This document shows, piece after piece, positions 6,864 to 52,960 of a DNA stretch of 64,000 nt; within the stretch, counting starts at the first letter, position 1; each line of letters starts with the position of its first letter. Under the pieces are notes generated by a model, which ran no database searches, had not been told where the DNA came from, and was given only the letters and a program-made list of their open reading frames with translations. The stretch is from Dendrophyllia cribrosa (Eukaryota > Cnidaria > Anthozoa > Scleractinia > Dendrophylliidae). Location of the stretch: contig JAJLRJ010000001.1 in the NCBI GenBank assembly GCA_024195265.1, positions 60,630,289 through 60,694,288 on the forward strand, given 5' to 3'. Both the position numbers and the translations under genes were made by a program.

Positions 6864-8373
6864 TTAGTTGAATGAAAAGCGTTCGTTGATTCCGTGGGGT
6901 TTGAGAGTGCCGATTTGAAAGATGATTTTTTGTTCTAGGTTTTTACGGCTTTCTGTGTTACCCTGGTGTAGGGAAAGGCCGCAGATTGTCATGTGTTGTT
7001 TAGAATGGTTAGTAAGATTAAAATGGCGCGCGACTGGTTTGGATGCGTCTTTGTCATTTTTTTCAACGTCTCGGAGATGTTCACGAAAACGGTCGCCCAG
7101 TCTCCTCCCTGTTTCGCCAATGTATATCTTTTTGCAAAAAGTACATGTTATGCAGTAGATAACATTTACGGAGGTGCATGTAAAACGATCAGTGATTTTA
7201 ATAGATCGTTTGGGTCCTGTTATTTTGTCCGCGTTGTGAATGAAAGGACAAGTGTTACATCGTGTGCGTGTGCATTTGAAAGTTCCCGGTACATCGTCAG
7301 ATTTCAGTGCGCTCGTAACTAGAAAGTTGCCTATGTTTTTGTCACGTTTGAATGAAATTAGTGGGGGTTGTGAAAAAATTCTGCCAGTTTCGGGGTCGTT
7401 TTGGAGTAATTTGAAATTTTTTAAAATGATGCTTTTGACTGTGTTGTTGTGTGGGTGGAAAGTGAGGGTGAATGGAATTCTCTCGTTCTCTTCCATCTGT
7501 GGCATTTGTAGTGCTGATTGTCTGTCGATCTGTTGTGCACGTTGTTGGCCCGTATTAACAACAGAGTCAGGGTACCCACGTTTCTTGAAAAACTGGCACA
7601 TTTCTTCTGATTTGTTGGAAAAATCAGAGTCATCACTACATAGACGTCGAAGTCTGAGAAATTGAGAATACGGAATGGCGTTTTTAACGTGCGATGGATG
7701 TGAGGATGAATGTAACAGATAACTGTGGGAATCTGTAGGTTTGTAGTGCACACTTGTGGATAAACTGTTACCGTTGATTGAAATATTAATGTCAAGAAAA
7801 GCGACTGAGGTTTCGGAAATTTCCCAGGTATATTTTAGAGCTGGATGAAAAGTATTGACAGAAGTTATGAATTGATTAAGTTCCTCTTTACTGGAAGAGG
7901 TAGCGCCAATGCAATCATCGATGTAGCGGCCGTAGAGTTCGGGTTTGGTTCCGTGGTACTGATTAAAAAATTTGTCTTCGATGTGGCCTACAAAAAGGTT
8001 AGCGTAGCTTGGTCCCATTTTGGTGCCCATGGCGACTCCATTTACTTGTTTGTAGTAGTTTTGGGAAAATGAAAAACAGTTAAGTGTCAAAACTAATTCG
8101 GCCAAGCGGAGCAGTGTTTCTGAGCTTGGGTTTTGAATGGAGCGCTGGTCGAAAAAATATTTTAGTGCTTGAAGTCCTTCGTCATTGGGGATGACGGTAT
8201 ATAAAGAGGTAATGTCCATAGTGAAAATTAATTTGTTTTCGCTGGGAAAACTGAAATCCCGGAAAATTTCGAGTGCGTGATTGGTGTCCTTAATGTACGA
8301 GGGTAGTGATTTGACAATGGGGGCCATGATTTTGTCTAAATAGCTAGAAATTAGTTCGGTAGGACAGCTACAA
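6864..8373 (-). pseudogene. Penelope-like RT / GIY-YIG protein, N-terminally truncated
   Basis: About 500 codons of a Penelope-like polyprotein: reverse transcriptase motifs (FTMDITSLYTVIP, GVAMGTKMGPSYANLF, catalytic YIDD at about 7926-7915), then a cysteine cluster (CTRTRCNTCPF) and a GIY-YIG endonuclease (VIYCITC ... IYIGETGRR). The N-terminal region seen in copy 2 is missing because the insertion is truncated at the inverted junction. The frame continues to 8423, but its first 16 residues (8423-8376) are antisense read-through of the inverted arm and not element protein. The catalytic Asp pair and the YIG residues are intact here, unlike copy 2. Confidence 0.9.
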
Positions 8374-8692
8374 GCGTTTTCGTGAACATCTCCGAGACGT
8401 TGAAAAAAATGACAAAGACGCATCCAAACCAGTCGCGCGCCATTTTAATCTTACTAACCATTCTAAACAACACATGACAATCTGCGGCCTTTCCCTACAC
8501 CAGGGTAACACAGAAAGCCGTAAAAACCTAGAACAAAAAATCATCTTTCAAATCGGCACTCTCAAACCCCACGGAATCAACGAACGCTTTTCATTCAACT
8601 AATCTACATTTGTTTTTCACGTCACCAAACTTCCACCAATAGCGTAGCTCCACCGCTTACTATATAAAACCACACACTACCCACAATTCCTT

Positions 8693-8931: not shown

Positions 8932-10112
8932 TTCTTAAATAATCTGTTCCGGTACACCGCCATCATACAATCGCGTAGCACAACTACGCCGAAGGGAATG
9001 ATTAGTATTGTGTCCATCGAACCCCGCTTTTTTCATAATTTCCTTTACCACATCCCCCAAAGTTTCCCTCCCCGTTCCTTTTTTGTAATACCAGATGTCC
9101 CCTTTTGACTTAGGCAAAGCTCGCAAATAAAACGCGTTATCGCTGACTTTCATTGGGACATGAGATATGTATTTCTCATACAGTTCAGCCTGGTAACGCC
9201 CTACATTAGTCAAATTCTTATATGCCCGAACAGCTTTCTTTTTGATACACAAATGGCCCAATCCCCCGGCATTATTAGTCTTACTTATATCCTCGGTGTA
9301 CTGCAAAAATTCACTCCCCAATTCGTCATACTGTAAAGATAGCTGTTAGTTTTATACCCTCAAATTTTTGTGCTCTTGCCCAGCCCTCAGAGCAAACTGA
9401 ATACCAAAAACCCAAACCAATGTATCGCGAAGCAATTTCGCGTTTTCGTCGCCTAGAAAACCATGTTCCCACAAATAGTTTTCCTGTTCTTCCGATATCA
9501 AATTGGCCTGGTTAACGTCTACACCTATTCCCTTTCTTTCATTACAAAGTTTAAAGCAGAATTAACGTTTCTAAATGTCTACCTTTCTTGTCAATCAAAG
9601 TTAAATCTCGCTTACATTGCACACGTAAATACATTTGGATGCTACCTAACATTTCATATAAAGTCTTTCCTGGATATTCCTGGCCATCTTCTTTCCTTAC
9701 TTCTGCTAACAAAACGCGCCAAGGCAAAGTTAAGCTGCTCGTCAGACATTTCATCTAGATCCTCGTTGATCACTGGCTCGCTACTGTAACTTTCTTTTAA
9801 AACTGCATTATTTCTCTCATTCTTCCATTGATCAAAGACTTTCAACACCCACGCCCATTTTCTACGGCTGGCATCTGACACCCAATTTTTTTCAAACTTC
9901 TCTAAAGATATAATTGGTCTTTTAAATCTGTGCTCTACTTAAAAATGAAAAATGAAAAACAGTTTGTCAGGAAATAAAAAAGTGACCGAAATAACTAAAG
10001 TTACCAGCCTTACCTTTGAGCGCTGCCGAAACATAATTTTTCGAACTCTACGTTAGAAAAATCACTGATTCGTCTTCCGATGAATCCTCCATGCTTCCAA
10101 CAAGTGAGCTAG
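8932..10112 (-). pseudogene. Crypton-type tyrosine recombinase, broken
   Basis: Minus-strand pieces from 9890 to 8935 read as one decayed protein: an N-terminal helical DNA-binding part (NWVSDASRRKWAWVLKVF), a middle part (GKTLYEMLGSIQMYLRVQCK) and a C-terminal catalytic part containing TNHSLRRSCATRLYDGG. The last carries the H-x-x-R box of Crypton/DUF3504 tyrosine recombinases. At least one frameshift (around 9705) and several stops (around 9550 and 9350) interrupt it. The sequence ends at EQII, just before the expected catalytic tyrosine. A possible first exon lies at 10112-10018, with a donor GTAAGG and an acceptor near 9940, but its frame is disturbed. Family identification is from motif recognition. 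Confidence 0.65.
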
Positions 10113-10264
10113 GCACTGAATAAAATGACTGAATACTCTGAGTTATAAAATATGCAATTTTTTGTGAACATTCTTGTCAACAATAAATAAATTCAATAAT
10201 AATGTTCACACATGATCATAGTTACATAATCCTCACAACAACTCAAGAATTGAGGTTATGTAAT

Positions 10265-10429
10265 CGCCACCGCAATGTATAGTGTACGTAGTCACAATAA
10301 GTGCTAATTTCATTTTTATAGCTGTATTCAAAATCAATGATGTAACAGCCAGATGAGCGGCTAAAATCGAAGATATTAGGTATAGAGAGAACAATAGGAT
10401 TTTATGAGGATCAATTGTTATGAGTTAAA
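10265..10429. repeat. Duplicated segment, copy 1
   Basis: The stretch with tatagctgtattcaaaat followed by ggctaaaatcgaagata recurs at 11395-11655, where it is interrupted by a hairpin element (11477-11582). The two copies flank the MITE cluster between them. Confidence 0.6.
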
Positions 10430-10950
10430 TACCTTATTGGTACTAATTTTCGCGGGCACTTAATTTCGCGAAAAAAAGGTCGGCATATTTCGCGGGTCTT
10501 TATTTTCGCGATTTGGGTGCAAAATTATTTTCTTAGGGAATTAATTTTCGCGAAAATGAAAAAAAAAACACATTTTATTTCGAGAATTTTTAATTATTAT
10601 TTTACACTTCTTATTGCTGAAAATCATCAACTCATAACAAAACCAAACTATATGACGATAGCGATACAGATGAAGAGGTTCAAAGTAACACAGATAGTGA
10701 AATTTGACTGTTAAACTGTTGTTTATCATCTGTAGGCATGCCATAGAGCTTTTACACGTTATACACAATACATGTACGTAGACATGTGTTTCTTCATTAA
10801 TTGAGAAAACAAGAAATATAGGAGGGTATTAAATTTCGCGACATTAAAGTTCGCGGGAATTTTTTTTCGCGTCGCTTTAAGTTCGCGATTTTTTTTAAAT
10901 CGCGAAAATCGCGAAATTAAAGCGACGCGAAAATTAGTACCAATAAGGTA
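10430..10950. mobile_element. MITE rich in TTCGCG motifs
   Basis: Terminal inverted repeats of about 25 bp: TACCTTATTGGTACTAAT at the left end and its complement ending at 10950. A TA dinucleotide is duplicated at both ends. The interior contains about a dozen ttcgcg or cgcgaa hexamers, clustered subterminally. Frames inside are not conserved coding. Confidence 0.8.
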
Positions 10951-15629: not shown

Positions 15630-15739
15630 TTAACCCTAACCCTAACCCTAACCCTAACCCCTAACCCTAACCCTAACCCCTAACCCCTAACCCTAACCCT
15701 AACCCTAACCCTAACCCTAACCCTAACCCTAACCCTAAC
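15630..15739. repeat. Interstitial telomeric repeat (CCCTAA)n
   Basis: About 18 units of ccctaa, some ccccta variants, in a single block with no other telomeric or subtelomeric features. TTAGGG is the telomere repeat of cnidarians and most animals. Flanking DNA on both sides is ordinary, so it is internal to the chromosome or contig. Confidence 0.95.
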
Positions 15740-16431: not shown

Positions 16432-19400
16432 CTAGTGACTCGTGGTCTGGTAGTACACTCGTCTTTCCTGGTGCTTCTGGTGCGAGGTAAAGAACGCGAC
16501 GTAAAATTCAGTCCAGCCACCAGTTCGCACCCTGATAAGATCGTACTTCTCTGGGCTTCTTTGAGCATGTGACAAAGTGTTCGGGTTGGCACAGGTTACT
16601 ATTGCAAAAAAAAAAAACAGGAAACATTATTAAAACTTAAATTCAGTCACACTAGTGATTTATATCTATTTGACATAAATACATTATCAAGCAGAAAGCT
16701 GACGAGAGTTTCCCACTCTAGAATATCTAGAATATCTGGGCACTAGCCTAAGGCGCTATGATATCTGGGATCGTTGGGGCGATAGGGGGAGGTGTATTGA
16801 AGAGGGAGACGAAACCATGCTGGGTAAATAACAAAGCAGGTTTTTTTCTACTCTTTACTGCAATTTTAGTACCCAAGATGATACCAATCTCAAACGTTTA
16901 CCCCCTGAAAGGTACGAAGATCATCCCATCATTTTTAACCCGTGAATACGCGTAGCGTAACGAACGGGTTATCAGAGACGACGGCAAATTCACTCACTCA
17001 CTCACTCACTCGCTCTATCCATCACTCAGAATCATATTTCTTATTAAAAATTGTTCGCAGTAGGGATTGTTTTCTGTCCAAAAACACTTTATTACTCCTG
17101 ATTAACTCGAATCAGCTTACTTGTCAAGACGTTTCCTCCAATTTCATTCCCCTCAGCATAACGTTTAAGGAATGCTGCTAAATCTTCTTCCTTAAAATCT
17201 TCTTCGATGTTTAGATCAACCTCGGCACCATTCGCTAGCCCAAGATTGATGCACGTGTTATCCCAACACTTCATGGCCCTGCAAAAGTAAAGTAAACGAC
17301 GTAGAAATGTTACAGGAATTAAGTAAGAGATGCTGCGTGCCATTGTAGGCCTTAGCGGACGGGGATGGGAGAAAGAAGGGGTACTCGCCGTCCCTACGAT
17401 TGGTCGCTGTTTCCTTTTCTGAACTTACTTGTATATGTCACATTTCCTTGGTGTGGCGGGTAGATCCAGTGGTGTTGGAGCAGCACTCATATCTGAAGCC
17501 ATGGGGGACCCTACCCTCCTGCCATCTGCTGACGCTGCACAGCTCAGCCCCCATCCGACATAACCCTCAAATGTGCCAGATCCCGGGGGCAATAAAATAT
17601 CCCACGGTTGAGATCCAGGAATCGAGTTCTTCTGCTTCAAGCTCTGGATGAGATCCTTCAGAGGATGACCTTCGGTTGGTGGCGTGTCACGTGATACTTC
17701 CTTTACAACGGTTGTTATCTTTTCAGCTAACCAGCTATCCGAAAGAAATAAGAGAATGGGTAAACATTTAGACTTTTCATATTGGAAAAACAAATAAAAA
17801 ATTCTTCGACTCGGTCCATTTTCATCCGCATAATTTCACGAGACTTACGGCAAATATCATCCCTTTAACACTATAAACGGTTATCTCGCTTAAAAGTGAA
17901 AAGGTTTCTTTCCATGAAGAACAGGAATGTTGGATGAGAAATTTGCACGACTTGATTTCTTTTTAAAGTTAATTTCCTACTCAGATATTCTCTTTAGAGA
18001 CGCCGTATACGCATGCGCATACAAAGTTCTCTAATTTTCTTAATCCTTTTCCCCATAACTCGGTTATTAAAGACCGTCGGGCTTCACACTTTTGTCAAGT
18101 CAAAGTATCACAAAGTTGAACATTGCAGATAGCGACAGTTGTTACGGAGACACGGTTTGAAGGTCACTTAAAAGAAAGCTTTCTATTCTGGAAATATTAC
18201 ATGTATTTCTAACATTACTGTAGTGATAATGGAAATTTAGCAACTCGCCTAGCGATGTGAATTTTTAGAACATTTTTTGGTTCGAGTAAATTAACACATT
18301 AAATTGTACTAACCTTGCAATGCTTTTAATTTCATCGTTTTCTGCTCCTGCGCTAGTTCCAAATTTGGGCAAGTCCAGTGCTTTCTGACGTAACTCTTTA
18401 TATGAGTCAGATAAACGTTGTCCTCGCGTGTGTCCCGTGAGCTCCTCGTGGAAAGGCTCTTGCATTTTGTATCCCCAGTCACACTTTAGGCAGCATACTA
18501 ACTGAGAAAGAGAAGTCACAGCTGTGTCATGGTCGAAACACAATTTCTTTATGGCGTACAAAGAATCCACTGTATTGGCGAAGCTGATGAACTGCACTCC
18601 GACAATCGTGTAGTTGGCTCCAGCGTTGTACATATCACGCTTGGTCTCCAGGCAGCCACGGATGACAGACGACAGCAAGGGACTGGGGCAGAAATTGACA
18701 ATGTTGCCATAGTTCGCTATGGTGTTGAACAGATTGTTTTCAGTTTGCACCCATAGATGCTTGACGAAAAGGACTTTTACCTGTAGAACAGGACGAAAGG
18801 AATAAAACTATAAACACAGCGTTAAGCTTATCTAGGGGGTGATTAAATTAGGAACAAGATATGAGCTTAGCAAAGAGTTGCAATCCGAAAACTTATTATG
18901 GCACTGGAATTTATCTTAACGGAATAAAATTCTAGCTAGCTTGTTTACAAAATTGGTCAAAATTCTACTTCCGGCTTTTTACTACGGCAAGCAATCCGCT
19001 AGATGTTTCGTTTTCGCGGTATAATTGAAAAGATGATTGTCGAATCAAAGTTAATGTCTCCAGTCTGAATATTTTGCTCAATTCTTTGGACTGATCTGTA
19101 AGTGTTTAACAGGACGGTTTGTTGCTTGACATGACCATGTGCTAGTGTTTACCTGAAACGAAGACATTTTACATGATACAAATTAAAACGAATTTTAGGC
19201 AAGAAAGAAATGGAGAATCGAGCTTCAGATGTCACCTATATATTAAGGAATAAATTACGCGAGTCATATTTTTAAAAATATGTTTTGTTGGATGCTCCAA
19301 AACTGACGAAGTTCCACAACGGCAAAGCGCTTTCCATTCAACCAAAAATTCCGGAAATTCCGGGTTGAGAAGCGAATGGAACATAAATTTCCCAGAATAA

Positions 19401-22400
19401 AATAACGGAATTTTAGGACAACCTCGCGCGGTTGTCCTAAAACTTCGGAAAATCGGAACAACCGGAAAAACCGTTCCATTCAACCATTCCTGCTCGGCCC
19501 AGTTTCTCCGAGCCGGAATCGAACGTGTCCGCATGGTCAAGATGGCGTCTCAATATCAGTGCGGTCGGCATTAGATAACATCGGGTGAAACCTGATTTCT
19601 GCCCAGCGGTCGCAGTGAAAACAATAGGCCATTTCCGAGTTACGTTATGCCTCGTTGTCAAAGCGAGGCTAGGTGCACAACCTTTCATATGAAAATTGTT
19701 TTTTATTCAAATGCAAATAAAACTCATCTTCATATGAAAGGATGTGCACCTAGCCTCGCTTTGACAACGAGGCATAACGTAACTCGGAAATGGCCCATTG
19801 GTTTGTGGGGTTGCTCATTCTCGCGCGGGCGCAGAAATCAGGTTTCACCCGATGTTATTTAATGCTCACCTATCAGTGCACGGCGTGTTTGTTTTTCACC
19901 GAAAGCTTACAGCTCTTTCTCGAGCATGATTGCTCACGTAACATAGCTAGTACAACAGCAGAAATGGCCACAGCTAGGACTGGTAAGTAGCACAGAAATG
20001 CTTATAAGCTTACGTATTAAACGAATGTAATAAGTCACGAGCACAAAGTAGTCGCCGACTCGATTTTTAAAAATTCCTTCGTATGTAACAGCTAGCTGCA
20101 CTGAAAAAAATAATATCATCGTTTTCGCTTAAAATATCGTACGTTTTAACTTCAGAGTCGTCGAACAACTCCAAAGCAAGTAAAAGAGGCAACGAGTCCG
20201 CCATTTGTTTTGCTTTGGTTTATTTTGTATTTTCGCGCGAAACTTGGAACATTATGGCCTGGAACAACCAACCGGAAAATACTGTTCCATTCGCCACACG
20301 GAATGCCTGGAATTTCAAACCGAAATTTTTGGACGAATGGAAAGCGCCCAAATATCTTCTCGTCGCCGACGGGACCGCGACAGCAGGAAGGCTAGCTAGA
20401 GCATGCGCAGTATCGCACAAATCATGGCACCACTTCCGGCCGAAGTCGCCTTCTGTTGCTTAAGTTTTGTATTGTTTAATAATGACTATTTTATTAAAAT
20501 AATAATACTCATAGGACACATTATCGCTCTAACCTCTTCAAAAGAAATAATGTCCTCTGGACGAGTTGTGGGCAGTGACTTGGGAGTACCGTCCAAGTAA
20601 GCAGGCCCTGCGAGCAAGTATGTGGCTCCATGGTTTATAGCCATTTCCAGCACCTGCAGCAGTGTTACGTACGCCAAAGAGAACTGTGTTTCACCGGGGA
20701 AAATGGGTTCATAGCAACCATCACAAGAGTAGTTTCGCGCTGTTTGCAAGCCCACGGGAAGATCAGTGGTTCCCGTTTGCATAAGCCCCGTTATAAGACG
20801 ATCATCGTGGAGAAATATCGGATGGGCCCCTCCACTGAGGACAGTTCTTGCTGCCTCTCGCAGAACCTGTGGTAACAAGAAATATGAAAGCCCATGGTAT
20901 GTCTTTGGTTGCCACGTTACAATTGGTTGGTGATGTAAGGTAGACTAGTCAAAAATTATCTTGAGGATGTGACACTTCTCACCTGTTCAGGCATGTTTTC
21001 GTGCACTCTAAGGGACAAACAAGGTGCGTTGAGCGGAAGCCTGCGGGAAGCTTTAAGGCACATTATGGTGATGGCATTGCACGCATCTGTCGGGACTTTC
21101 TCCTTGTTGGCTTTGTATCCACCAACAGTAATCTAAATGGTAATAAAGAAAACTCACATGAGCTACTTAACTAAAATTTACATGTAAAACATTAGCTATT
21201 ATAGGAGACATAAGTAAAAAGTTAACTTACTACCACCATTTCTTGGTGGCCGTCTATTTCAGTCAGTCTGTTAGCGCTAGCATTTGTTGATTTTTCAACT
21301 CTTGCTCTGTGTGTACTCTTGTACGCACTATGGTCCTTTTCTTTTAATTTAGGCTTTTTGCGTCCAAAGTTAGAGTAACTAAAAATATCCGAGCCTTTTT
21401 GCGTAAATATTTAATTTTAAATATCAAAATTTCCTGATACCGATTTTTTACAACTGCCTCTGTAACGTGTTGGCCAAGTTTTACGAAAATCCGTCAAACC
21501 TACATACTCTAAAAAATCGTTCAAAGTCGACATATTTTCCCAAAATTCAAGTGCGAGATTTTCACTCGTAACATTTTGTAAACGACATGCGCCACCAATG
21601 AATCAGCCTCACCCCTTCACCCCTGCGCGTAGGACAAAATACACCGATAGTTATCCGACGAGGGAATACAAGTTCGACGCAAAGTCATTTTTAAACCCAA
21701 TTTCTGACAAATTTTGGTTTGATGGCGACTTTATTCTTCGCAAGTGTTAAGCTGATAAAGCCGGATAGTTGCTTGTGGTTGAAGAAATATTTTTTGGGGG
21801 AATTTTTGTACCTCGAAGGTAGGGAGTAACCTTAAACTCGATTGTCTAAGAAGCAAAACATAATTTTTTATTTTTTTGGCATTTTACAAAACCAAGCTTA
21901 CAAACAAGAAATATTACAAGCACAAACAAAATCAACAACAACAACAAAAAAAGAGAAATACAATGTTACAAGATTTTGATTGAAGTACGCCTAGATATAG
22001 AGGGGGTAAATAAGAGATTGGATTTTTAATTAGTATACAGATCAAGATTTATTGACTTATGAATAGAGTTCAATTCTATACTTGTACATTACTTTTTTTA
22101 TAAAATCAGAGATCAGTAATGAATCATTCTGGAGTTTTCTTTTATAAATATAGTAACGCAAAAACAGTAGAGTGTAATTTAATTTTTTCTGTAATACATC
22201 AGATACAGTAGGTAGCCCAAATAAAAATTCCTCAGTGTTAAGATTGAATGCAGAATTGTGAGTTGTATTAAACCATTGTAACACCTTCTGAGCGAAAGAC
22301 ACAGTGAACTGACAACTTATAAAGCTGTGATCAATAGAATCCTCTTCTCCGCAATAAATACAATCACTATTTTCCTTAATCTTGAACCTGAAAAGTTCCT

Positions 22401-25400
22401 TCTTGGTCACAATAATTCTGATCTATGAATGAATTTAAAATGAAACTCACGTAATTTGTTTTCTACACACATTCTATGAACTGATTGAAAAATTTCTTTC
22501 CAGCATATGTTTTCAGGATTGATCGATTTAATCCACCGTTTAGGTCCGGTTTGTGGATTTGTGCGTGATTTGTTGACAAGCAGCCAGTAAAAGTCCTTTG
22601 ATTTTGTTTTTAATAAGTTTATATTATTGTTTTCATCGAGAGGAAAGCAAGTTAAGTCATCATTCATTATATTTCCATCAGAAGAAGCTATCAGTTCTTT
22701 ACCTTTTTGTAAAAGATGGTTTGGAATAGCGCTGACAACTTGATAGTACTGAAGAAAGTTGGTCTTTTCCAAAGAATACTTAGTTTTAATTTATTGAATG
22801 GAAGGATATTTCCATCACTATCCAAAAGGTCCACAATCGTCTTAAACTCCCTTACTAAACCATTCATGAAAAAAGAAAGGCTTTGCTCCAATTAATATCT
22901 CTTTATTATGATAGAGAATCGTATCACGGAAAACATATATAATCACTTAAACCTGTTTTTGAGATTTTCCAAATACAGTTGTTTGTGGAGGCGCGGTGGT
23001 ATAGGTGGCTATAATCACTTAAACCTGTTTTTGAGATTTTCCAAATACAGTACTGTTTGTGGAGGCGCGGTGGTCAGTATAGAGGCTATAATTACTTAAA
23101 CCTGTTTTTGAGATTTTCCAAATACAGTATTGTTTATGGAGGCGCGGTGGTCAGTATAGAGGCTATAATCACTTAAACCTGTTTTTGAGATTTTCCAAAT
23201 ACAGTACTGTTTGTGAAGGCGCGGTGGTCAGTATAGAGGCTATAATCACTTAAACCTGTTTTTAAGATTTTCCAAATACAGTATTGTTTATGGAGGCGCG
23301 GTGGTCAGTATAGAGGCTATAATCACTTAAACCTGTTTTTGAGATTTTCCAAATACAGTACTGTTTGTGGAGGCGCGGTGGTCAGTATAGAGGCAATAAT
23401 CACTTAAACCTGTTTTTGAGATTTTCCAAATACAGTATTGTTTATGGAGGCGCGGTGGTCAGTATAGAGGCTATAATCACTTAAACCTGTTTTTGAGATT
23501 TTCCAAATACAGTACTGTTTGTGGAGGCGCGGTGGTCAGTATAGAGGCAATAATCACTTAAACCTGTTTTTGAGATTTTCCAAATACAGTATTGTTTATG
23601 GAGGCGCGGTGTCATAGAGGCTATAATCACTTAAACCAGTTTTTGAGATTTTCCAAATACAGTACTGTTTGTGGAGGCGCGGTGGCATAGAGGCTAATAT
23701 ATATAGATGGCTGAGCCTAACAGCGTAGCACTTTGAACAAGCTTAACTAAGGTGAAACTTAACTAAGGTGAAAGGTCGGAAGCACAAGAATTAAAATTGA
23801 CGACCGGGCTATTTTTCAGTTTTAGCAATTCTCAAAAACAGTAAGCTTAAGGCTTATTACCCGACAGTCTGCACAGTACATTTAGACCGTACAAAAGTTC
23901 ACAAAAACAACTTTTCTCTGTCTAGAATAACTAGTACGACTACTTTCCGAATAAAATACAGTTGTTGTTTGCCAAAAATTGCTCGAGAAACTGATTTGGA
24001 AATCAAAATTGCAAAAATACACAAAAATATTTGCATAAGGCGACGCGAGTGAAATCTAAGTCTTGTTTTGTTTCCATAAAATCGCTTTTCAATCTATGTA
24101 ATGAATGAACAAACATATAAAAATGGACAACACAATCTTCTTTCGACAAATTTGATTCAAATCTCCATCAGTTTATGTTTAAAAGCAAAACGCGTACCAT
24201 TTTAATATAGCGCATCAAGCTGCCTTCGATGAAATTCAAGAAATCGATACAACTGAAGTTAAGCTCGTTTTAATTAAAATAATTCTCCAAAACTACACAA
24301 GAACACAAAGAAAAAGTCAATCACAGATTGATATCAACATAAATTCCCATCGAAAAATGTAATCTGTTCAGTTTACCTTTGAGTCCCTCGCTTGCTTGTT
24401 AATTCTCTAAAGCCCGGTTTCCATATGATCGCTACGATCGCTGCGATCGCTGCGATCGCTGGAAAAAAAGTTCAGCAATCGCAGCGATCATATGGAAACC
24501 ACTCTCCGGCGATCGTAGCGATCACAGCGATCGCAGCGACAACGATCGCTGCGATCGCTGTGATTCTATCTCAGCGATCGTGGTGATCGTAGCGATCATA
24601 TGGAAACCACTCTCCAGCGATCGCAACGATCGCAGCGACAGCAAAAATACCAGGATGCACTGCGTACGCTCACTCAAAGGGTGCGATTTGGCCCTTTTTA
24701 TGGAAGAAGTGCAAAGATACGACTGTCTTTATAACAAATTTTAAAAACAATTCACAGCCGCCATGTTGAATTTCAAGAATGGAAAGAAACGATATTGTCA
24801 GACCCAGGTCCCCTCGATCTTCATTCACTTTCTCAGCGATCGCAGCGATCATATGGAAACCATCAATCGCTACGATCGCTGAACTATTTTTTTCAGCGAT
24901 CGCAGCGATCGTAGCGATCGTAGCGATCATATGGAAACCGGGCTTAAATCTCCGCTCCTTTGGTTCTGAAATCCGTAATAAAAACAAACATATCTCCCCG
25001 TATTGAAATGAAGTTCCTCGAAGCAAGATTTTATACCAGAAAGCTCTTCTTTTTCTACTAAAGCGGCTTCTGAGTATCCCTTAATTAGTATCCCTGTCTT
25101 GAGTAGCAAACCGCGAAAAAATACAGGGAAATAACGACTTTATATTACTTGTCCGCTAAACACTGACCAGCGAAAAATCCAAACTTTTTAAAACATGTTT
25201 ACCGAGCTGACGGCTGTGTAGCCGCGCGAAAAACAAAGCCTCAAAGATCCCGGATGTTGATGACGTCGTACGAGCTAGCCCAAAGCGTACGGCGGGCGTT
25301 CGGCGGCGGACGTTCGGCGGCGGGCACACAACGCGCCCGCGAAACATTCCGCTAGCCATGACCATGAAAAATGACGGCATGGGTTCTATGAGTATGGGGC

Positions 25401-28400
25401 TGCGCAGCCGGGCCTTCGGCCTGGCAAGTGCTCCGCTATAAGCCCCGTCTACACGAGCAATTTTTATGTGGCAATTTTCTATGTGGCAATTTTTATTTGC
25501 CCGTGTAGATGATCGACAAATATTTGTTGTTAATTTGTTGTAAATATTAGGGACTGGGTTCTACAGATGACGTCGAAAAAATTGTCACATTTTATGTGGC
25601 GTCTCGTCTACACGGACAATTATCGGTATGTGGCAATTTTTATTTGCCACATAAAATGTGGCGTCTCGTCTACACGGACAATTATCGGTATGTGGCAATT
25701 TTTATTTGCCACATAAAAACTAACACGCCAGCTTTTCATCAAATACAGTTGTCAGTTTGACATTATCCAAATACAGTACTGTTTAAATGAAGGCGCGGTG
25801 GTATAGAAGCTATAATCACTTGAACCTGTTTTTGAGATTTTCCAAATACAGTACTGTTTATGGAGGCGCGGTGGTGTGGAGAAAGGTCGATGGTTTGAGG
25901 CCTTGTGTCGGCCGTCGTGTTCTTTGTAAGAACTTTACCCACATTGTCTCTCTCAACCCAGGTGTATAAATGGTTACCGGAGACAATGCTGGGGTTTCCC
26001 TACGATGCATTTGCATCCAATCCGGCCGTGTTGGCCACCTGTGGCTGGTGTGCGATTTAACCAAATACAGTACGACTAACCTGCTGAACCCACTGATTAA
26101 TAGCATCCCCATGAGGAAACATCCCATCGCTCGAGTAAGGGACAGCGGTGGTGCCCCATTCCTGTAGGTCCATAAGAAGTCCTCTGTTAAGTTGTACTTG
26201 GCTTCCGAGTTTGATCCACAAGCAGTCGATGACTTCCTGAGCCTCCTCAACATTAGTTCCCTTCAGGAAAGGCTCAAGTAGCTGGTCTAGTCGGCCAATG
26301 GACGTTGGCTCCCCTGTCAGATGCAGACAGGAGTGATAAGAGTACAACAGCTGGGTGGCCTCAAGGAATGTCTCTGGTGCTTTTGTAGAGAGATTGGTCA
26401 TTCTTTTTTCAATCTGTAAATAACAGAAAAATACAAAAAACTTACTTTCTTGAGCCGGGATTTAAAGTTAAAAGTCGAAGTTGGTTTACCTCTTTTAAAT
26501 TTGTCCGTTGGGAAGTGGTAAAGGCAGTGTCGCTTCTCTCGGCAAGGTGTCCTGCCAAAATTCCAAAATTCCACACGTATTCCTGAACTCCTTGCAATGC
26601 AAGGATACAAGCCTCCAAGAAGTCATTCTCCTCATGACTGCTTGTTTGGTTTTCCTTCAATTCCAGCCTTATTTTCGTGATCATCGCAGCCAACCCTTTG
26701 TTCAGCAAAGTCTCGTAATCTGGGATGACATGGCCCATTCCCGACGATTCACTTAGCCCTTTAATGAATGCTGGCATCTTTTCATCTTCTCGAAGATAAG
26801 GCATCACAACCTTTCCAAGCCCGAGCGAGAACGTTGCTGGCATATGACCAACAATCAATTCATCTGGATGGATGCTAAAGGTGTCGGCTTTCGTCCCAAA
26901 GAAAGATTCATCCTGGAGCTTTGAGACATCATGTGTTGTGAAGAACCTTCCCAGGGAGACTTTGATGGCCCAGCCTTTTCGAATCATGACGGAAGTACCC
27001 TGAACCTCGTCTTGGATATTAAAAAGATGTGGGAATGAGGGCATCTCTCGGCGCTTGTACCACTGATCATTCCAGTGAAGAAAGGAGAAGCTCAAAAGAC
27101 GGAGTGCTCGCCCACTTGGGTGGTCTCCGGGGCTGTAACCTCCCGTTGTCATACGATAAAGATACTCTTTCTGATTGTAGAACAAGTATTTGTTGGAAGG
27201 ACTTCGTATGTCCCAGTGTTTTAACAATTCAAACCTAAAAAAAACAAGGCGTCCTTAGTTGGATGTTCTATAATGGAGGTTTGGTGAGCCAGTGTTATGC
27301 AACACTCACAGGCATAATAATCACACAACCGTGATTCGTTAGCCCTTTGGCTGCGATAAAAAGTAAGTTTTTTTTCAATAAAGCTATGCATGATTCATGT
27401 ATGAATCAATTTCTAACTAGTTGTATGCCGTGTTGAAATATTACATTACAAGAATTGATGGGCGTTGCCGTAACAGAACAACATGCTCTTCTTGCGGCTC
27501 CATTTCCTTGACAACCATTTTTCAGTGTATATTTTATATTTTACAGTCTCATTATCTTTATTTGTTTCCATTCGTCCAGTCCTTGACGTGCTCTTTATGT
27601 TGTTGTATTATATACTTCCTTACCTCCTCTCCTTGTATGACGTCACCAGTCCCAGTTCCTGAGAGCTGGGCACATACCAAAAGGTTCCTTGCAGTGGCTT
27701 CACGGAGCTGATGAGCATATCAACTGTCACTTCTCCACGAGATGAATCCCTCTGATCACCAATGATGTTCTTGAGGATAGTAGCGAACTGTGCCGTTGTG
27801 TTGCAAATGCTCATGTACATCGACCCCTCTTCCTTGCCTGGCTCATTCGCCCTTGTCCCGTACGGCATCGAAAGACGAAATACAATTGGATGCCGCTTAA
27901 ACGCGTTTAGCGGCGGAGTTTGGTGAACAACGTGGGCACGTGTTATATGTGCTCGTTCGTCCGGGTCTGGGATAAACGTGTCTGCAGAGGATTTCCTGCC
28001 AATCATGTCTTCCTTTTGGATCTGGTTAAAAAAGGAAAATCGTCATGAAAGAACTTTTCTTTATAAAAAAAATAGGGCACAGTTTGCGCATAAACCGTCC
28101 GTTAGCTCCATAAGTAGAAGGAAATGAGAGTTCAGATATTGATTCTGTTCGAGAGATAGAAAACGCTTTCTGTGTTGCCATAATGTTTTCGTAACACTAG
28201 GTTGGAAGAACGAGAAACGCCGTGAAAACTTGAGCGAAGGCGAGCGTTTCCACAGCCGCTTCGAGTTTTTCCAACCTTTCACGAGGTTTACTTAACCATA
28301 ACTTGAACTTTTAATTCCGTAACAAGGGCCTTGCTGTAACTCTTTACTCTTTACGGCCTTCATTATAAGCTATAAATGGTACAGAACGTTTGGGGTCATG

Positions 28401-30311
28401 TACGTTATTATTTTATTTTATTAAAATTTAATGGAGCATAGTTAGGAAAGTTTTCTACTTTTATAACCCATAAACGCCCAAAACAACGTTTTATCAGGGC
28501 GAATGTAGTGTTACCTTATCCATACTTCCCATGATGGTCCAGTTAAACTCAAATTTTTGTGTCATAAGGTAGGTGGAACCAGGATGTCCCGCCGTTGAGT
28601 CATCTCCAGTTACTATGTAAGTTTTCAGAGTCTCCGCGTCAGACGGATTTGCTAGACCATCTTGAAATGAACTGTGGATTACACGCTAGCGGAGTAAAAC
28701 AAGCCAGGAGTAATGTTTAAATTACAATATCTATACTACAAGATCTGTAAATAGGTAAGGCATGAAATTTTATAAAAACTGGAAGACTCTTGGAAGATCT
28801 ACGTTACGTCGACTTACGTTAGTAATTAATGTTACGTTAATTTACGTTACCGTGTTTGGAGGAGACGATGAGGTTACATCAAGTGGCCGGACGAAGAAGT
28901 TCCCCATTTTCTCCTCAAGGCGAGTATAAATACCATTTACATCACTTTCCACGTCTGACTTAATTAAGAAAAACACATCTCCCCCTGTTTGAAGAAACTT
29001 CTGTGAATTTGGAACAAGCTGTGTTTGAGGCCGGCTTTCCATATTTTTCAGCTTTGGGTCATCTTTGAACCAACTGCTCCACTGATTTGGATCAAAGGCA
29101 ACAATTGTTGTTGCACGAGATTCTGAAATGAAATAAATCGTTAAAACGGGACATGATAAGGATGTTGTTAGTCGCTCATATTAAATAGTATGAAGGTGCT
29201 CAGCTTGCATGTAAATTGGTTGTCTTGGTTAGCTAAAATAAACAGATAAACATGACAGGGTGTACTGAATAGAAAACATTTCGGAGTATTAAGGCCCGTT
29301 TACACATGCTATTTTTGATGCAATTTTTGTCGCCCTCTCTAATGCTACTTTTGTCGCAAGTGTAAACTAGCGGCGATTTCTTGTGCGGTTCGGGTGCGAC
29401 ATTTGCTTTGATTTGCTATGATTTCCCAAAAATCGCCGCTATGTTGCATCAGGTTTCGAACATGTTCGAAACTTCTGCGACATACACCGAATGCAAATAT
29501 GGTCGCCAGGCAATTTTTTGTTTGGCCAAGTTTTCAGGGAAATTAATGATATCACGTAAACAAGTGCTGCTAAGTGTATCATCTTGCAAAGTTTGAGTGT
29601 TTTTTGTTTAACGGTTGCAAAGTTATGGCTCATTGAAATTTTAAGCATTTGTATGAGAAAAGACATTCTAGCCTGACTAGCCTCGCTTTCATGATTTTCC
29701 CAAAATTTGATTGCCTATAACTTCTCCTAAAATAAGAATATGGCCTTGAAAATGCACATAATGACTTATTTAAATATAAAGAGTGTAACAAACAAATCGA
29801 ATGAAAAGGTCTCACCATGTTCTCCTTTATTGCTCAGAGATAAACTGAATTTTATGACATCTCGAGCAGCTTTCAAAATGTCATCTCGAGTTTGAGCCGG
29901 ATTCAGGTTTTCTTTGTAACGAGCAACCACAACTTTTCCAAATTTTGGTTTATTGAAGAATAGTCCAGGCTGCACTTTATGAAGAACTTCGTCCTAATAT
30001 GATAGAAAACAAACAAAGTATACCCCAATTGCCTGTGAACAAGCTCTTTAATGGGGGCATAGGGTTAAAAGAAATTAGCGAGCGAAGCGAGCGTTGTGCG
30101 GCCTGGATAGTACAGAGGGGGCCTCGCCCGCTAAAATAGTTTAAAAATTATTACCAGTGAGAAGCCCATTCAAAGATAAAAGTGTCATATTTGCACTCGT
30201 TTTTTTTTTTTGCACTCTAGAATGTTATGTCAAATAATAAATGTTTTTAAAGCGTATACTTACCTCTAACTGATTCATTTTCTGTTCCTCCAGTCTTTGG
30301 AAAAGAGACAT
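16432..30311 (-). CDS. DyP-type peroxidase-glycyl radical enzyme fusion (13 exons)
   Basis: Exons, 5' to 3': 30311-30264, 29993-29816, 29122-28851, 28685-28515, 28021-27624, 27234-26490, 26413-26081, 21132-20983, 20866-20534, 18780-18314, 17734-17429, 17278-17121, 16598-16432. All introns are GT-AG and all phases agree, giving 1241 residues. Residues 17-355 match YfeX-like DyP peroxidases: FQDGLANP (distal Asp175), IGRK at 230, AHITR (proximal His248) and FRLSMPYGT (distal Arg272). Residues ~356-440 are a linker not recognised. From ~440 a glycyl radical enzyme follows: PDELIVG, LDQLLEPF, ITVGGYKANKE, CDGCYEP (Cys816, Glu818), a CPSPLLSS block and the C-terminal RVRTGGWTEF (radical Gly1214). 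Cys-x-Glu points to the dehydratase/lyase branch, not pyruvate formate-lyase itself; the substrate is unknown. The start Met is uncertain, since a splice acceptor just inside exon 1 is possible. Confidence 0.9.
19310..19490. repeat. Dispersed repeat related to 20255-20350
   Basis: Contains gcgctttccattcaacc and ggaacaaccggaaaa...ccgttccattc. The second block recurs near 20260 (ggaacaaccaaccggaaaa). Probably an old non-autonomous transposon in intron 9 of the fusion gene. Confidence 0.45.
19568..19863. mobile_element. MITE that hosts a second, nested MITE
   Basis: The outer arms ttagataacatcgggtgaaa and its near-perfect complement at 19835-19863 flank a complete inner element (19627-19795). 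It lies in intron 9 of the fusion gene. Confidence 0.65.
19627..19795. mobile_element. MITE, CCATTTCCGAGTT family, copy 1 (nested)
   Basis: Long inverted arms of about 70 bp starting ggccatttccgagttacgtt. The same family occurs at 30620-30788 with diverged arms. Centre contains catatgaaa motifs. Non-coding. Confidence 0.8.
21866..22905 (-). pseudogene. LINE ORF2 3' fragment in intron 7 of the fusion gene
   Basis: Minus-strand frames at 22891-22691, 22772-22407 and 22410-22057 form the C-terminal third of an L1/Tx1-type ORF2. They include FLQYYQVVSAIP, CVENKLREFHFKFIHR and the knuckle CIYCGEEDSIDHSFISC. These correspond to the C-terminal segment of the LINE at 1-3188 (EYYKVVSAIKYY and CSFCKETPETLVHL). 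Frameshifts separate the pieces. A T-rich run at 21866-21880 is the poly(A) tail of the minus-strand insertion. No reverse transcriptase domain remains. Confidence 0.8.
22930..23695. repeat. 77-bp tandem array with alternating unit types
   Basis: About ten units of 77 bp, each with atcacttaaacctg, gattttccaaatacagta and ggaggcgcggtgg. Two variants alternate strictly (tactgtttgtgg, then tattgtttatgg), giving a 154-bp higher-order period. Lies in intron 7 of the fusion gene. One and a half further units occur at 25747-25877. Confidence 0.9.
24411..24943. mobile_element. MITE built from GCGATC/CGATCG repeats
   Basis: The termini agcccggtttccatatgatc (24411) and its complement ending at 24943 are inverted. 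The interior carries dozens of gcgatc units in both orientations plus internal copies of the catatggaaacc end motif. This suggests a composite or rearranged element. Intron 7 of the fusion gene. Confidence 0.7.
25443..25722. repeat. Short transposon-like repeat with internal tandem duplication
   Basis: Repeated blocks gtctacacggacaattatcg and tatgtggcaatttttatttg. A segment of about 65 bp is duplicated in tandem at 25590-25716. Likely a MITE in intron 7; clean target duplications were not identified. Confidence 0.55.
25747..25877. repeat. Detached copies of the 77-bp unit
   Basis: One full and one partial unit of the array at 22930-23695, about 2 kb away from it. Confidence 0.8.
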
Positions 30312-50736: not shown

Positions 50737-52910
50737 TTAGTTGAATGAAAAGCGTTCGTTGATTCCGTGGGGTTTGAGAGTGCCGATTTGAAAGATGATT
50801 TTTTGTTCTAGGTTTTTACGGCTTTCTGTGTTACCCTGGTGTAGGGAAAGGCCGCAGATTGTCATGTGTTGTTTAGAATGGTTAGTAAGATTAAAATGGC
50901 GCGCGACTGGTTTGGATGCGTCTTTGTCATTTTTTTCAACGTCTCGGAGATGTTCACGAAAACGGTCGCCCAGTCTCCTCCCTGTTTCGCCAGTGTATAT
51001 CTTTTTGCAAAAAGTACATGTTATGCAGTAGATAACATTTACGGAGGTGCATGTAAAACGATCAGTGATTTTAATAGATCGTTTGGGTCCTGTTATTTTG
51101 TCCGCGTTGTGAATGAAAGGACAAGTGTTACATCGTGTGCGTGTGCATTTGAAAGTTCCCGGTTTATCGTCAGCAGATTTCAGTGCGCTCGAAACTAGAA
51201 AGTTGCCTATGTTTTTGTCACGTTTGAATGAAATTAGTGGGGGTTGTGAAAAAATTCTGCCAGTTTCGGGGTCGTTTTGGAGTAATTTGAAATTTTTTAA
51301 AATGATGCTTTTGACTGTGTTGTTGTGTGGGTGGAAAGTGAGGGTGAATGGAATTCTCTCGTTCTCTTCCTTCTGTGGCGTTTGTAGTGCTGATTGTCTG
51401 TCGATCTGTTGTGCACGTTGTTGGCCCGTATTAACAACAGAGTCAGGGTACCCACGTTTCTTGAAAAACTGGCACATTTCTTCTGATTTGTTGGAAAAAT
51501 CAGAGTCATCACTACATAGCCGTCGAAGTCTGAGAAATTGAGAATACGGAATGGCGTTTTTAACGTGCGATGGATGTGAGGATGAATGTAACAGATAACT
51601 GTGGGAATCTGTAGGTTTGTAGTGCACACTTGTGGATAAACTGTTACCGTTGATTGAAATATTAATGTCAAGAAAAGCGACTGAGGTTTCGGAAATTTCC
51701 CAGGTATATTTTAGAGCTGGATGAAAAGTATTGACAGAAGTTATGAATTGATTAAGTTCCTCTTTACTGGAAGAGGTAGCGCCAATGCAATTATCGATGT
51801 AGCGGCCGTAGAGTTCGGGTTTGGTTCCGTGGTACTGATTAAAAAATTTGTCTTCGATGTGGCCTACAAAAAGGTTAGCGTAGCTTGGTCCCATTTTGGT
51901 GCCCATGGCGACTCCATTTACTTGTTTGTAGTAGTTTTGGGAAAATGAAAAACAGTTAAGTGTCAAAACTAATTCGGCTAAGCGGAGCAGTGTTTCTGAG
52001 CTTGGGTTTTGAATGGAGCGCTGGTCGAAAAAATATTTTAGTGCTTGAAGTCCTTCGTCATTGGGGATGACGGTATATAAAGAGGTAATGTCCATAGTGA
52101 AAATTAATTTGTTTTCGCTGGGAAAACTGAAATTCCGGAAAATTTCGAGTGCGTGATTGGTGTCCTTAATGTACGAGGGTAGTGATTTGACAATGGGGGC
52201 CATGATTTTGTCTAAATAGCTAGAAATTAGTTCGGTAGGACAGCTACAAGCGGAAACAATTGGTCGGCCCGGATTGTTTGGTTTATGAATTTTAGGTTTG
52301 AAATAAACGCGTGAGGTTCTAGGAGTAGTGATGATGAGATTGTTGGCGGTAACTGGTAATTGTTGTTTAGTAATGAGGTCTTGGATAGTTTCTTTGACAA
52401 TTTTTTGGTTGCTAGAAGTGAGATCTTTATCAACTTTGGCATAGAAAGCGGTGTCAGAAAGTTGCCGAAAAGCCTCTTGTCGGTAAAGGTCGGTCCGCCA
52501 AACAACTACCGCCCCGCCTTTGTCGGCCGCTTTGATAACAATATCGCGTCGTTTGCTAAGACTTTTGAGCGCTGCCCACTCTCCCGTTGAAAGGTTGGAA
52601 ATTTTGGTGTGGCGGTTAAATTTAAGTTTTTGGACATCGTGACGACATTTTTTGACGAAAAAATCTAGAGAAGAAAACTGGCCCTCTGGGGGAGTCCATT
52701 TTGATTTGCAAACGTTGAGTGTTTCAAAAACATCTTTTTCCGAGGTGTTAGAATTGTCTTCTTTGTCGTGGAAAAAAGCTCTTAATTGCACGCGGCGAAG
52801 GAATTTTTCAACATCTTGTTTGACTGAAAATTCGTCGGTTTGTTTCGCTATAGGAACAAAGTTTAAACCTTTACTAAGAACAGACCTCTCTGGGTTAGAA
52901 AGCGGCAAAA
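50737..52910 (-). CDS. Penelope-like RT / GIY-YIG endonuclease protein
   Basis: The open frame runs from 52941 to 50737 (734 codons). Its first ~10 codons are read-through of the inverted end, so element protein begins near PLSNPERSVLSKGLNF. N-terminal region typical of the family (SKGLNF, DKGGAVVVW, PKIHKPNNPGRPIVS), then reverse transcriptase and a C-terminal GIY-YIG endonuclease with a CTRTRCNTCPF cysteine cluster. Two key positions are altered compared with copy 1. The catalytic YIDD is YIDN (Asp384 to Asn; a C-to-T change on the plus strand at 51792). The endonuclease YIG is YTG (Ile650 to Thr). The frame is open, but the protein is probably catalytically dead as a reverse transcriptase. 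Confidence 0.92.
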
Positions 52911-52960
52911 CGTAGCCCCACCGCTTACTATATAAAACCACACACTACCCACAATTCCTT

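What the first reader, a model, noticed from the sequence alone, without database searches (positions are those of the whole stretch)
16432..30311. Complete animal gene fusing a DyP peroxidase to a glycyl radical enzyme
Thirteen exons with GT-AG borders and matching phases give one 1241-residue frame: a YfeX-like DyP heme peroxidase followed by a whole glycyl radical enzyme with catalytic Cys816/Glu818 and a C-terminal glycyl-radical motif. Glycyl radical enzymes are oxygen-sensitive and mainly from anaerobic microbes, so a spliced animal copy is unusual. I know of no described fusion to a peroxidase. One inference is that the peroxidase removes peroxide near the radical centre, or feeds the same pathway. 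Introns show it is resident in the host genome; the origin may be an old transfer.
Basis: partly seen in the sequence, partly recalled or inferred. Interest (0 to 1): 0.93.

Follow-up and report, generated by a model that had tools for sequence, protein, structure and literature searches.

The report
Animal peroxidase–glycyl radical enzyme fusion
A coral-like genome carries an intact gene of bacterial type that joins a heme peroxidase to a glycyl radical enzyme; in the bacterial relatives examined the enzyme comes with a peroxidase but not with the usual activating enzyme, which suggests that the peroxidase itself may start the radical.

Summary
Thirteen minus-strand exons (30311-16432, introns GT-AG) give one 1241-residue frame: a YfeX-type DyP heme peroxidase plus a complete PFL-like glycyl radical enzyme (GRE) with Cys816, Glu818 and radical-loop Gly1214. 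It is no one-off: relatives in Acropora, Hydra, Clytia, shrimps, a mussel and amphioxus form one animal clade near a bacterial clade; a fern group is a second eukaryotic lineage. The architecture was noted before (DyP-PFL, PMC5041501) without a function.

New here is the genomic logic. Of 56 assessable bacterial loci, 43 have DyP fused upstream and 13 have a separate DyP gene directly downstream, EfeB-like where tested. Of 43 genomes with this GRE that I searched (of 57), the 39 without an ordinary PFL-like GRE have no radical-SAM GRE activase over cut-off; the 4 with ordinary GREs have it, near those genes. The host genome shows none with the one activase profile that could be run.

Best reading (about 0.5): the heme peroxidase replaces the activase and makes the protein radical from peroxide, allowing GRE chemistry in air. 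Radical formation and substrate are inferred, not shown. Thirteen relatives lack distal peroxidase residues, which counts against one uniform mechanism.

The parts
30264..30311 (-). exon 1, start codon ATG at 30311-30309 (an in-frame ATG at 30278 is an alternative)
   Evidence: sequence
29816..29993 (-). exon 2 (DyP)
28851..29122 (-). exon 3 (DyP)
28515..28685 (-). exon 4 (DyP; distal Asp175 codon 28661-28659)
27624..28021 (-). exon 5 (DyP; proximal heme His248 codon 27949-27947, distal Arg272 codon 27877-27875)
26490..27234 (-). exon 6 (connecting segment and start of GRE fold)
26081..26413 (-). exon 7 (GRE)
20983..21132 (-). exon 8 (GRE)
20534..20866 (-). exon 9 (GRE; CDGCYEP loop, Cys816 codon 20716-20714, Glu818 codon 20710-20708)
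18314..18780 (-). exon 10 (GRE)
17429..17734 (-). exon 11 (GRE)
17121..17278 (-). exon 12 (GRE)
16432..16598 (-). exon 13 (GRE; RTGGW radical loop, Gly1214 codon 16518-16516; stop codon)
21133..26080 (-). intron 7, 4948 bp, holding a 77-bp minisatellite at 22938-23685

Best explanation
This is an intact animal member of a DyP-GRE enzyme family of bacterial type. SHOWN: one open spliced frame; complete DyP and complete GRE folds in a bacterial member's model; invariant or nearly invariant GRE catalytic residues; a DyP partner at every assessable bacterial locus, fused or in a closely spaced gene pair; and no radical-SAM activase accompanying this GRE in the genomes searched. INFERRED: the heme peroxidase does the activase's job. 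Peroxide oxidises the heme to a compound I-type species, the oxidising equivalent passes through protein residues (invariant Trp and Tyr are candidates, including Trp1215 beside the glycine) to Gly1214 or straight to Cys816, and the thiyl radical then acts on a small substrate with Glu818 as base, as in glycerol/diol dehydratase or choline lyase. This would be an oxygen-compatible counterpart of radical-SAM-activated GREs, much as class I ribonucleotide reductase is of class III (analogy recalled). The substrate is unknown.
For: (1) Across 121 aligned proteins Cys816, Glu818 and Gly815 are 121 of 121; Gly1213, Gly1214 and Trp1215 are 117 of 117 with that end present. A second alignment of 114 rows gives 112, 111 and 111 of 112. 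(2) 56 of 56 assessable loci have DyP: 43 upstream in the fused arrangement, 13 downstream on the same strand; in 13 of 13 the earliest usable DyP start codon lies -11 to +39 bases from the GRE stop. (3) The fused DyP is YfeX/B-like. The separate one is EfeB-like in the one tested against solved structures (L047) and in both tested against NCBIfam (L047, L049); 12 of the 13 fall in one similarity cluster. So two DyP subfamilies appear to serve one GRE family. (4) Activase: of 43 DyP-GRE genomes searched (of 57), 39 have no ordinary PFL-like GRE and 0 of 39 an activase over cut-off; 4 have ordinary GREs and 4 of 4 an activase, on the same contig within about 3.5 kb of them. Two further genomes with ordinary GREs only: 2 of 2. 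Fisher p 1.2e-7 (genomes not independent by descent). (5) Host genome: best TIGR02494 match 21.3 bits. (6) DyP and GRE distances correlate, r 0.873, 0 of 999 permutations as high. (7) One-piece model of a relative, pLDDT 92, pTM 0.92. (8) In Chaetomium the fused gene is induced 3-fold by H2O2 and 18.5-fold by peroxyacetic acid (PMC5041501, passages).
Against: No radical, heme or activity has been measured. Thirteen of 121 proteins and five of 43 fused loci have His in place of the distal Asp/Glu and lack the distal Arg, so an ordinary peroxidase cycle cannot be universal. PMC5041501 reports a putative activase in Chaetomium; I could not test which radical-SAM family it is. Radical-SAM homologues below cut-off occur widely (TIGR02493 matches in 28 of 28 genomes of the first set, up to 62 bits where no ordinary GRE exists); only five such proteins were looked at and one identified by profile, so an unrecognised activase is not excluded. 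Anaerobic ribonucleotide reductase and its activase were not surveyed. One of the two locus-search patterns contains the catalytic Cys, so its invariance among loci is partly selection. The heme-to-glycine distance was not measurable. Some carriers are anaerobes by name (Scalindua, Desulfobacca). TIGR02493, a general radical-SAM control and a search for further DyP genes could not be run on the host genome (tool busy).
Confidence: 0.5

Rival explanations
1. The GRE half is activated by an unrecognised radical-SAM enzyme, and the DyP half merely removes peroxide that would quench the radical.
For: Characterised GREs use radical-SAM activases (recalled); PMC5041501 names a putative activase in Chaetomium. 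TIGR02493 matches occur in 28 of 28 genomes of the first set, 26 of them below cut-off only, e.g. an AmmeMemoRadiSam enzyme (TIGR04337, 654 bits) and MoaA-like proteins (by eye). Host genome tested with one activase profile only.
Against: 0 of 39 genomes without ordinary PFL-like GREs have an activase over the profile cut-off, while 6 of 6 with ordinary GREs do. No activase homologue lies in the fetched flanks of the 59 family loci except in L038, beside an ordinary PFL. The strongest subthreshold class, AmmeMemoRadiSam-sized hits near 55-62 bits, occurs in only some of the 28 genomes.
Confidence: 0.2
2. Two enzymes of one pathway: DyP oxidises a compound that the GRE then cleaves, or the reverse; radical source unspecified.
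For: Fusion and closely spaced gene pairs are typical of pathway partners. Neighbour genes include PLD-like and cytidine deaminase proteins by Pfam on one representative each, and a HAD-like protein by eye only, which might fit handling of phosphorylated or amino-alcohol substrates.
Against: Does not explain the missing activase with an invariant radical glycine. Exchange of one DyP subfamily for another fits a generic oxidant more easily than a specific substrate step.
Confidence: 0.17
3. The GRE half is no longer a radical enzyme; its fold is kept as a scaffold or for non-radical catalysis, so no activase is needed.
For: No activase over cut-off; the Gly_radical profile is below its cut-off in this protein.
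Against: Cys, Glu, Gly-Gly-Trp and many barrel residues are invariant or nearly so in fused and split forms. The Cys among loci is partly by selection, since one search pattern contained it.
Confidence: 0.1
4. Gene-model artefact: two neighbouring genes joined by the reader.
For: One GRE-only ORF close to the coral sequences, P0006 (858 aa, starts at the Met384 equivalent).
Against: Fused full-length ORFs in several animal groups and the fused arrangement in 43 bacterial loci; four uninterrupted fused ORFs on 3.8-4.8 kb contigs.
Confidence: 0.02

Closest known systems
DyP-PFL fusion of Chaetomium cochliodes and other genomes (PMC5041501, 2016; abstract and passages seen)
   Same: N-terminal B-type DyP, C-terminal PFL-like GRE domain, bacterial origin inferred, function unknown
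   Different: That paper assumes activation by a radical-SAM activase and calls the significance of the fusion elusive; the passages seen do not describe split pairs, absence of activase, or animal genes of this fusion
Glycerol/diol dehydratase and choline TMA-lyase type GREs (1r8w, 5i2a, 5fau)
   Different: About 20% identity; far below subfamily/equivalog cut-offs; RxGGW where 1r8w and 5i2a have RVAGY; DyP partner; no activase found
B-type DyP peroxidases (YfeX, DtpB; type label recalled)
   Different: Fused to a GRE; distal residues lost in one lineage of the family
EfeB/deferrochelatase-type DyPs
   Same: Nearest solved relatives of the separate DyP tested (L047)
   Different: Encoded directly downstream of the GRE; far below the deferrochelatase equivalog cut-off (135 and 159 versus 428 bits)
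Class I versus class III ribonucleotide reductases (recalled analogy)
   Same: A cysteine-radical enzyme may have oxygen-dependent and radical-SAM/glycyl ways to start
   Different: Different protein families; no sequence relation claimed

Membership tests
Glycyl radical enzyme (PFL-like) | PFL-like barrel fold | tested here: met
Glycyl radical enzyme (PFL-like) | catalytic Cys and Glu two residues on | tested here: met
   C816 and E818, 121 of 121
Glycyl radical enzyme (PFL-like) | C-terminal radical glycine motif | tested here: met
   G1214 aligns with the glycine of the RVAGY motif of 1r8w and 5i2a; variant RxGGW; Pfam Gly_radical 18.9 bits, under its 22.2 cut-off
Canonical radical-SAM-activated GRE | cognate radical-SAM activase in the genome | tested here: not met
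   0 of 39 searched genomes whose only PFL-like GREs are of this family; host genome none by TIGR02494, TIGR02493 not answered
Canonical radical-SAM-activated GRE | glycyl radical in the active enzyme | not testable with these tools
   needs EPR
Pyruvate formate-lyase proper | adjacent catalytic Cys-Cys pair (C418/C419 in E. coli, abstract of PMC10591478 seen in the listing) | tested here: not met
   C813-D-G-C816 instead; pyr_form_ly_1 not among the window protein's 11 NCBIfam hits
Glycerol/diol/choline-type GRE subfamilies | curated profile cut-off | tested here: not met
   best PFL2-3 213 bits versus 678; CutC 123 versus 1050
DyP-type peroxidase, B-type | DyP fold and superfamily profile | tested here: met
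DyP-type peroxidase, B-type | proximal His, distal Asp and Arg | tested here: met
   H248, D175, R272 in the window protein (roles recalled); absent distally in 13 of 121 relatives
DyP-type peroxidase, B-type | heme binding and peroxidase activity | not testable with these tools
   needs protein
DyP-PFL fusion family | DyP then PFL-like in one chain | tested here: met

The most novel reading that the evidence does not exclude
A glycyl-radical-type enzyme, present in corals, amphioxus, shrimps and aerobic bacteria including a cyanobacterium, that is switched on by its own heme peroxidase using peroxide or oxygen instead of by a radical-SAM activase: a further way to start cysteine-radical barrel chemistry, working in air and inside animals.
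Probability: 0.45. Interest if true: 0.95.

Novelty: new variant of a known kind. Interest (0 to 1): 0.82.

Why it matters
Glycyl radical enzymes are regarded as oxygen-sensitive anaerobic machines that need a radical-SAM activase. A family that keeps the radical residues, comes with a heme peroxidase and does not bring an activase would separate this chemistry from anoxia and from radical SAM. It would also mean that several marine animal groups carry an unrecognised radical metabolic step of bacterial type. The hypothesis is directly testable with bacterial split pairs, where the peroxidase and the GRE are separate proteins.

Tried and rejected
Anti-phage defence reading of the bacterial neighbourhoods (PLD-like, trypsin-like plus nuclease, deaminase): PADLOC gave only partial matches to the PLD-like and trypsin-like segments, so I do not file it as a defence system.

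My first motif for activases was written wrongly and would miss true ones; I replaced it by similarity to two real activases and a correct motif, which found one, L038, beside an ordinary PFL. Two other radical-SAM-like frames (L007, L050) showed and were not identified. My first DyP search missed the EfeB-like DyPs; profiles found them. In one search four loci (L017, L021, L026, L040) showed no gene because an antisense frame was chosen; one search resolved them.

In one search the six 'canonical' rows include ORFs that are not GREs (all frames over 700 aa of L060 and L061), so I draw nothing from that column. The split rows were picked by the motif DGC[FY]E; all 13 loci had such an ORF.

The locus scan used two short patterns, so members lacking both are unseen. 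Tree rows (74 and 59) were my choice from the 120 listed proteins and the loci; the two outgroup rows are very long branches. The hydrozoan rows sit with the anthozoans in the GRE tree (85) but apart on a very long branch within the animals in the DyP tree.

Not obtained: heme-to-glycine geometry (no coordinates); on the host genome the second activase profile (TIGR02493), a radical-SAM positive control and a search for other DyP genes (not completed).

Genomes left out of the activase count: 14 of 57 (L002, L003, L004, L005, L007, L008, L011, L019, L021, L025, L026, L044, L052, L059), mostly draft metagenome bins; L026 is an isolate that I omitted. The second set of 15 genomes was searched with TIGR02494 only; most are metagenome bins of unknown completeness. 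Three loci (L044, L052, L059) run off contig ends and were not counted for DyP. L062 holds only a remnant and was not counted in either tally.

Literature: ten searches. Only PMC5041501 was found to describe the fusion. Passages of PMC4420034 mention B-type DyP genes in the flatworm Schistosoma mansoni but no such fusion; passages of PMC3750612 held nothing on it. The library lacks most subscription papers and preprints.

Full report
OBSERVATION. Exons 30311-30264, 29993-29816, 29122-28851, 28685-28515, 28021-27624, 27234-26490, 26413-26081, 21132-20983, 20866-20534, 18780-18314, 17734-17429, 17278-17121 and 16598-16432 (minus strand) splice to 1241 codons plus stop, with GT-AG at all 12 introns and matching phases. 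Pfam finds PFL-like (1.6e-92) and Dyp_perox_C (3.1e-13); Gly_radical is present but below cut-off (18.9 versus 22.2 bits). NCBIfam places the N-terminal part just over the DyP superfamily cut-off. Nearest solved sequences are B12-independent glycerol dehydratase and relatives for the GRE part, and a DyP and YfeX for the peroxidase part. The host genome is 627 Mb in 22 contigs; all five PFL-like matches in it fall on exons of this gene.

RELATIVES. A protein search found 151 relatives, of which 120 were listed. Fused members, full-length or nearly so, occur in Acropora cervicornis (64%), Hydra, Clytia, two shrimps, amphioxus species, the fern Ceratopteris, and many bacteria; a Mytilus gene model carries both domains but aligns over only 52% of the query. 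Four unnamed ORFs of 1229-1231 aa close to Acropora lie on contigs of 3.8-4.8 kb, which leaves no room for introns of the size seen here, so I take them as transcripts (inference). One GRE-only ORF of that group, P0006, starts at the Met384 equivalent in exon 6; a transcript keeping intron 5 would give this (inference).

CONSERVATION. Among 121 aligned proteins C816, E818 and G815 are invariant (121 of 121), and G1213, G1214 and W1215 are 117 of 117 with that end present; a second alignment of 114 rows gives 112, 111 and 111 of 112. Profile alignment puts G1214 on the glycine of the RVAGY motif of solved dehydratases. The DyP proximal His is 119 of 119; the distal acid is Asp in 82, Glu in 21 and His in 13; the distal Arg is present in 106 of 119. 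The window protein has the full set: D175, H248, R272, S274.

PARTNERSHIP. A genome scan with two short patterns gave 62 loci: 59 belong to the family, L060 and L061 carry ordinary GREs, L062 only a remnant. Three of the 59 are cut by contig ends. Of the other 56, 43 have a B-like DyP directly upstream of the GRE in the same direction (three with interrupted frames) and 13 have a separate DyP directly downstream, whose earliest usable start codon lies -11 to +39 bases from the GRE stop. The separate DyP was typed in two loci: L047 has a deferrochelatase as best solved match at 1.2e-24, while structures matched by the fused DyP appear only near 0.002; L047 and L049 both match the deferrochelatase profile below its cut-off. 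Twelve of the 13 fall in one similarity cluster. All 13 split GREs keep DGCxE and GGW (the first motif was also used to pick the ORFs) and form one clade. Genomes of L060, L061 and L062 have no DyP match.

ACTIVASE. I searched 28 genomes, mostly named isolates, with both activase profiles and with PFL-like, and 15 more with TIGR02494 and PFL-like: 43 of 57 genomes available. Four contain ordinary GREs, and in all four the activase lies on the same contig near them: G011 and G018 with one each and G035 with one, within about 1 kb; G034 with two GREs and two activases, at 0.04 and 3.5 kb. The other 39 have no PFL-like GRE outside this family and no activase over cut-off. Homologues below cut-off do occur: matches at E 0.001 or better are in 28 of 28 genomes for TIGR02493, 23 of 28 for TIGR02494 and 13 of 15, these tallies including the genomes over cut-off; in genomes without an ordinary GRE the best is 62.1 bits against a cut-off of 231.75. 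Of five such proteins looked at, one was identified by profile as the AmmeMemoRadiSam enzyme, two more look like it and two like MoaA by eye. The genomes of L060 and L061 have activases with their ordinary GREs. Six of six versus zero of 39 gives p 1.2e-7, which ignores phylogeny. Within the fetched flanks of the 59 loci the only activase is in L038, next to an ordinary PFL. The host genome's best TIGR02494 match is 21.3 bits, although exons of the GRE itself were found by the same method. TIGR02493, a general radical-SAM control and a DyP search did not complete there. Anaerobic ribonucleotide reductases and their activases were not surveyed.

ORIGIN. In the GRE tree (74 chosen rows) the 19 animal rows are one clade (SH-aLRT 99), inside a group with ten bacterial rows (98); four rows around the fern are a second clade (100) among other bacteria. 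The DyP tree (59 rows) shows the same animal and fern clades (99, 100), though the hydrozoans sit elsewhere within the animals on a very long branch. The two distance matrices correlate at 0.873, with 0 of 999 permutations as high; 36 bacterial rows alone give 0.839. A single fusion followed by joint descent, with at least two entries into eukaryotes, is the simplest account (inference). Shared presence in cnidarians, protostomes and amphioxus suggests an early animal gene lost in many lineages (inference).

MECHANISM. Shown: constraint on radical residues, a DyP partner at all assessable loci, a second DyP subfamily in the split pairs tested, lack of activase over cut-off. Inferred: DyP supplies the oxidising equivalent that makes the radical. 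Aromatic residues conserved in at least 97% of rows (W215, Y339, Y375, Y380, W410, W414, W712, W978, W1215) could carry it, but no path was measured; in the split GREs Y375 is mostly replaced and W414 is W in 9 of 13. The induction of the Chaetomium gene by peroxide and peroxyacetic acid (PMC5041501) fits a peroxide-driven enzyme but equally a stress role. Against it: the lineage with distal His and no distal Arg (L013-L016, L031), and the reported fungal activase. Many of the 39 genomes belong to aerobes, including the cyanobacterium Anabaena (lifestyles recalled), where a standard GRE would be hard to run; a few belong to anaerobes.

VERDICT. The fusion itself is not new, and it is no oddity of one coral. 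What makes it interesting is the activase-free, peroxidase-coupled pattern, which is a sharp and testable hypothesis rather than a demonstrated mechanism.

Noticed in passing
window 6864-8444 and 50737-52944, minus strand: Two closely similar retroelement ORFs; the second carries reverse transcriptase (RVT_1) and a weak, sub-cut-off GIY-YIG match, as in Penelope-like elements (name recalled).
   Followed up: partly
window 15631-15739: Interstitial telomere-like (TAACCC)n array, 17.7 copies, just downstream of the gene.
   Followed up: no
window 22938-23685: 77-bp minisatellite, 9.8 copies, inside intron 7.
   Followed up: no
window 8938-9345, minus strand: Tyrosine-recombinase-like fragment (DUF3504, Phage_integrase).
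   Followed up: no
L014, L015, L030, L031 and the split loci among L041-L056: Recurrent neighbours of the bacterial DyP-GRE genes: PLD-like (12 loci), a HAD-like protein (12 loci; by eye, no Pfam match), cytidine deaminase (5 loci), trypsin-like and/or Endonuclease_NS proteins (5 loci, one of them L022); Pfam was run on one representative each, two of the nuclease group. The substrate or role may lie here.
   Followed up: partly
L005, L006, L008, L009, L010, L013, L039: One protein cluster, DUF2608 by its representative in L010, lies in the flanks of fused DyP-GRE genes in seven loci.
   Followed up: no
L013-L016, L031: A DyP-GRE lineage with distal Asp replaced by His and distal Arg lost, proximal His kept: a heme pocket unlike a normal peroxidase.
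   Followed up: partly
L062, Brevibacillus dissolubilis, about 10115-10873: A GRE remnant about 50% identical to the family; its genome has neither a DyP match nor an activase over cut-off.
   Followed up: no
L038, Chromobacterium alticapitis: DyP-GRE lies a few kb from an ordinary PFL and its activase on one contig, a natural side-by-side comparison.
   Followed up: no
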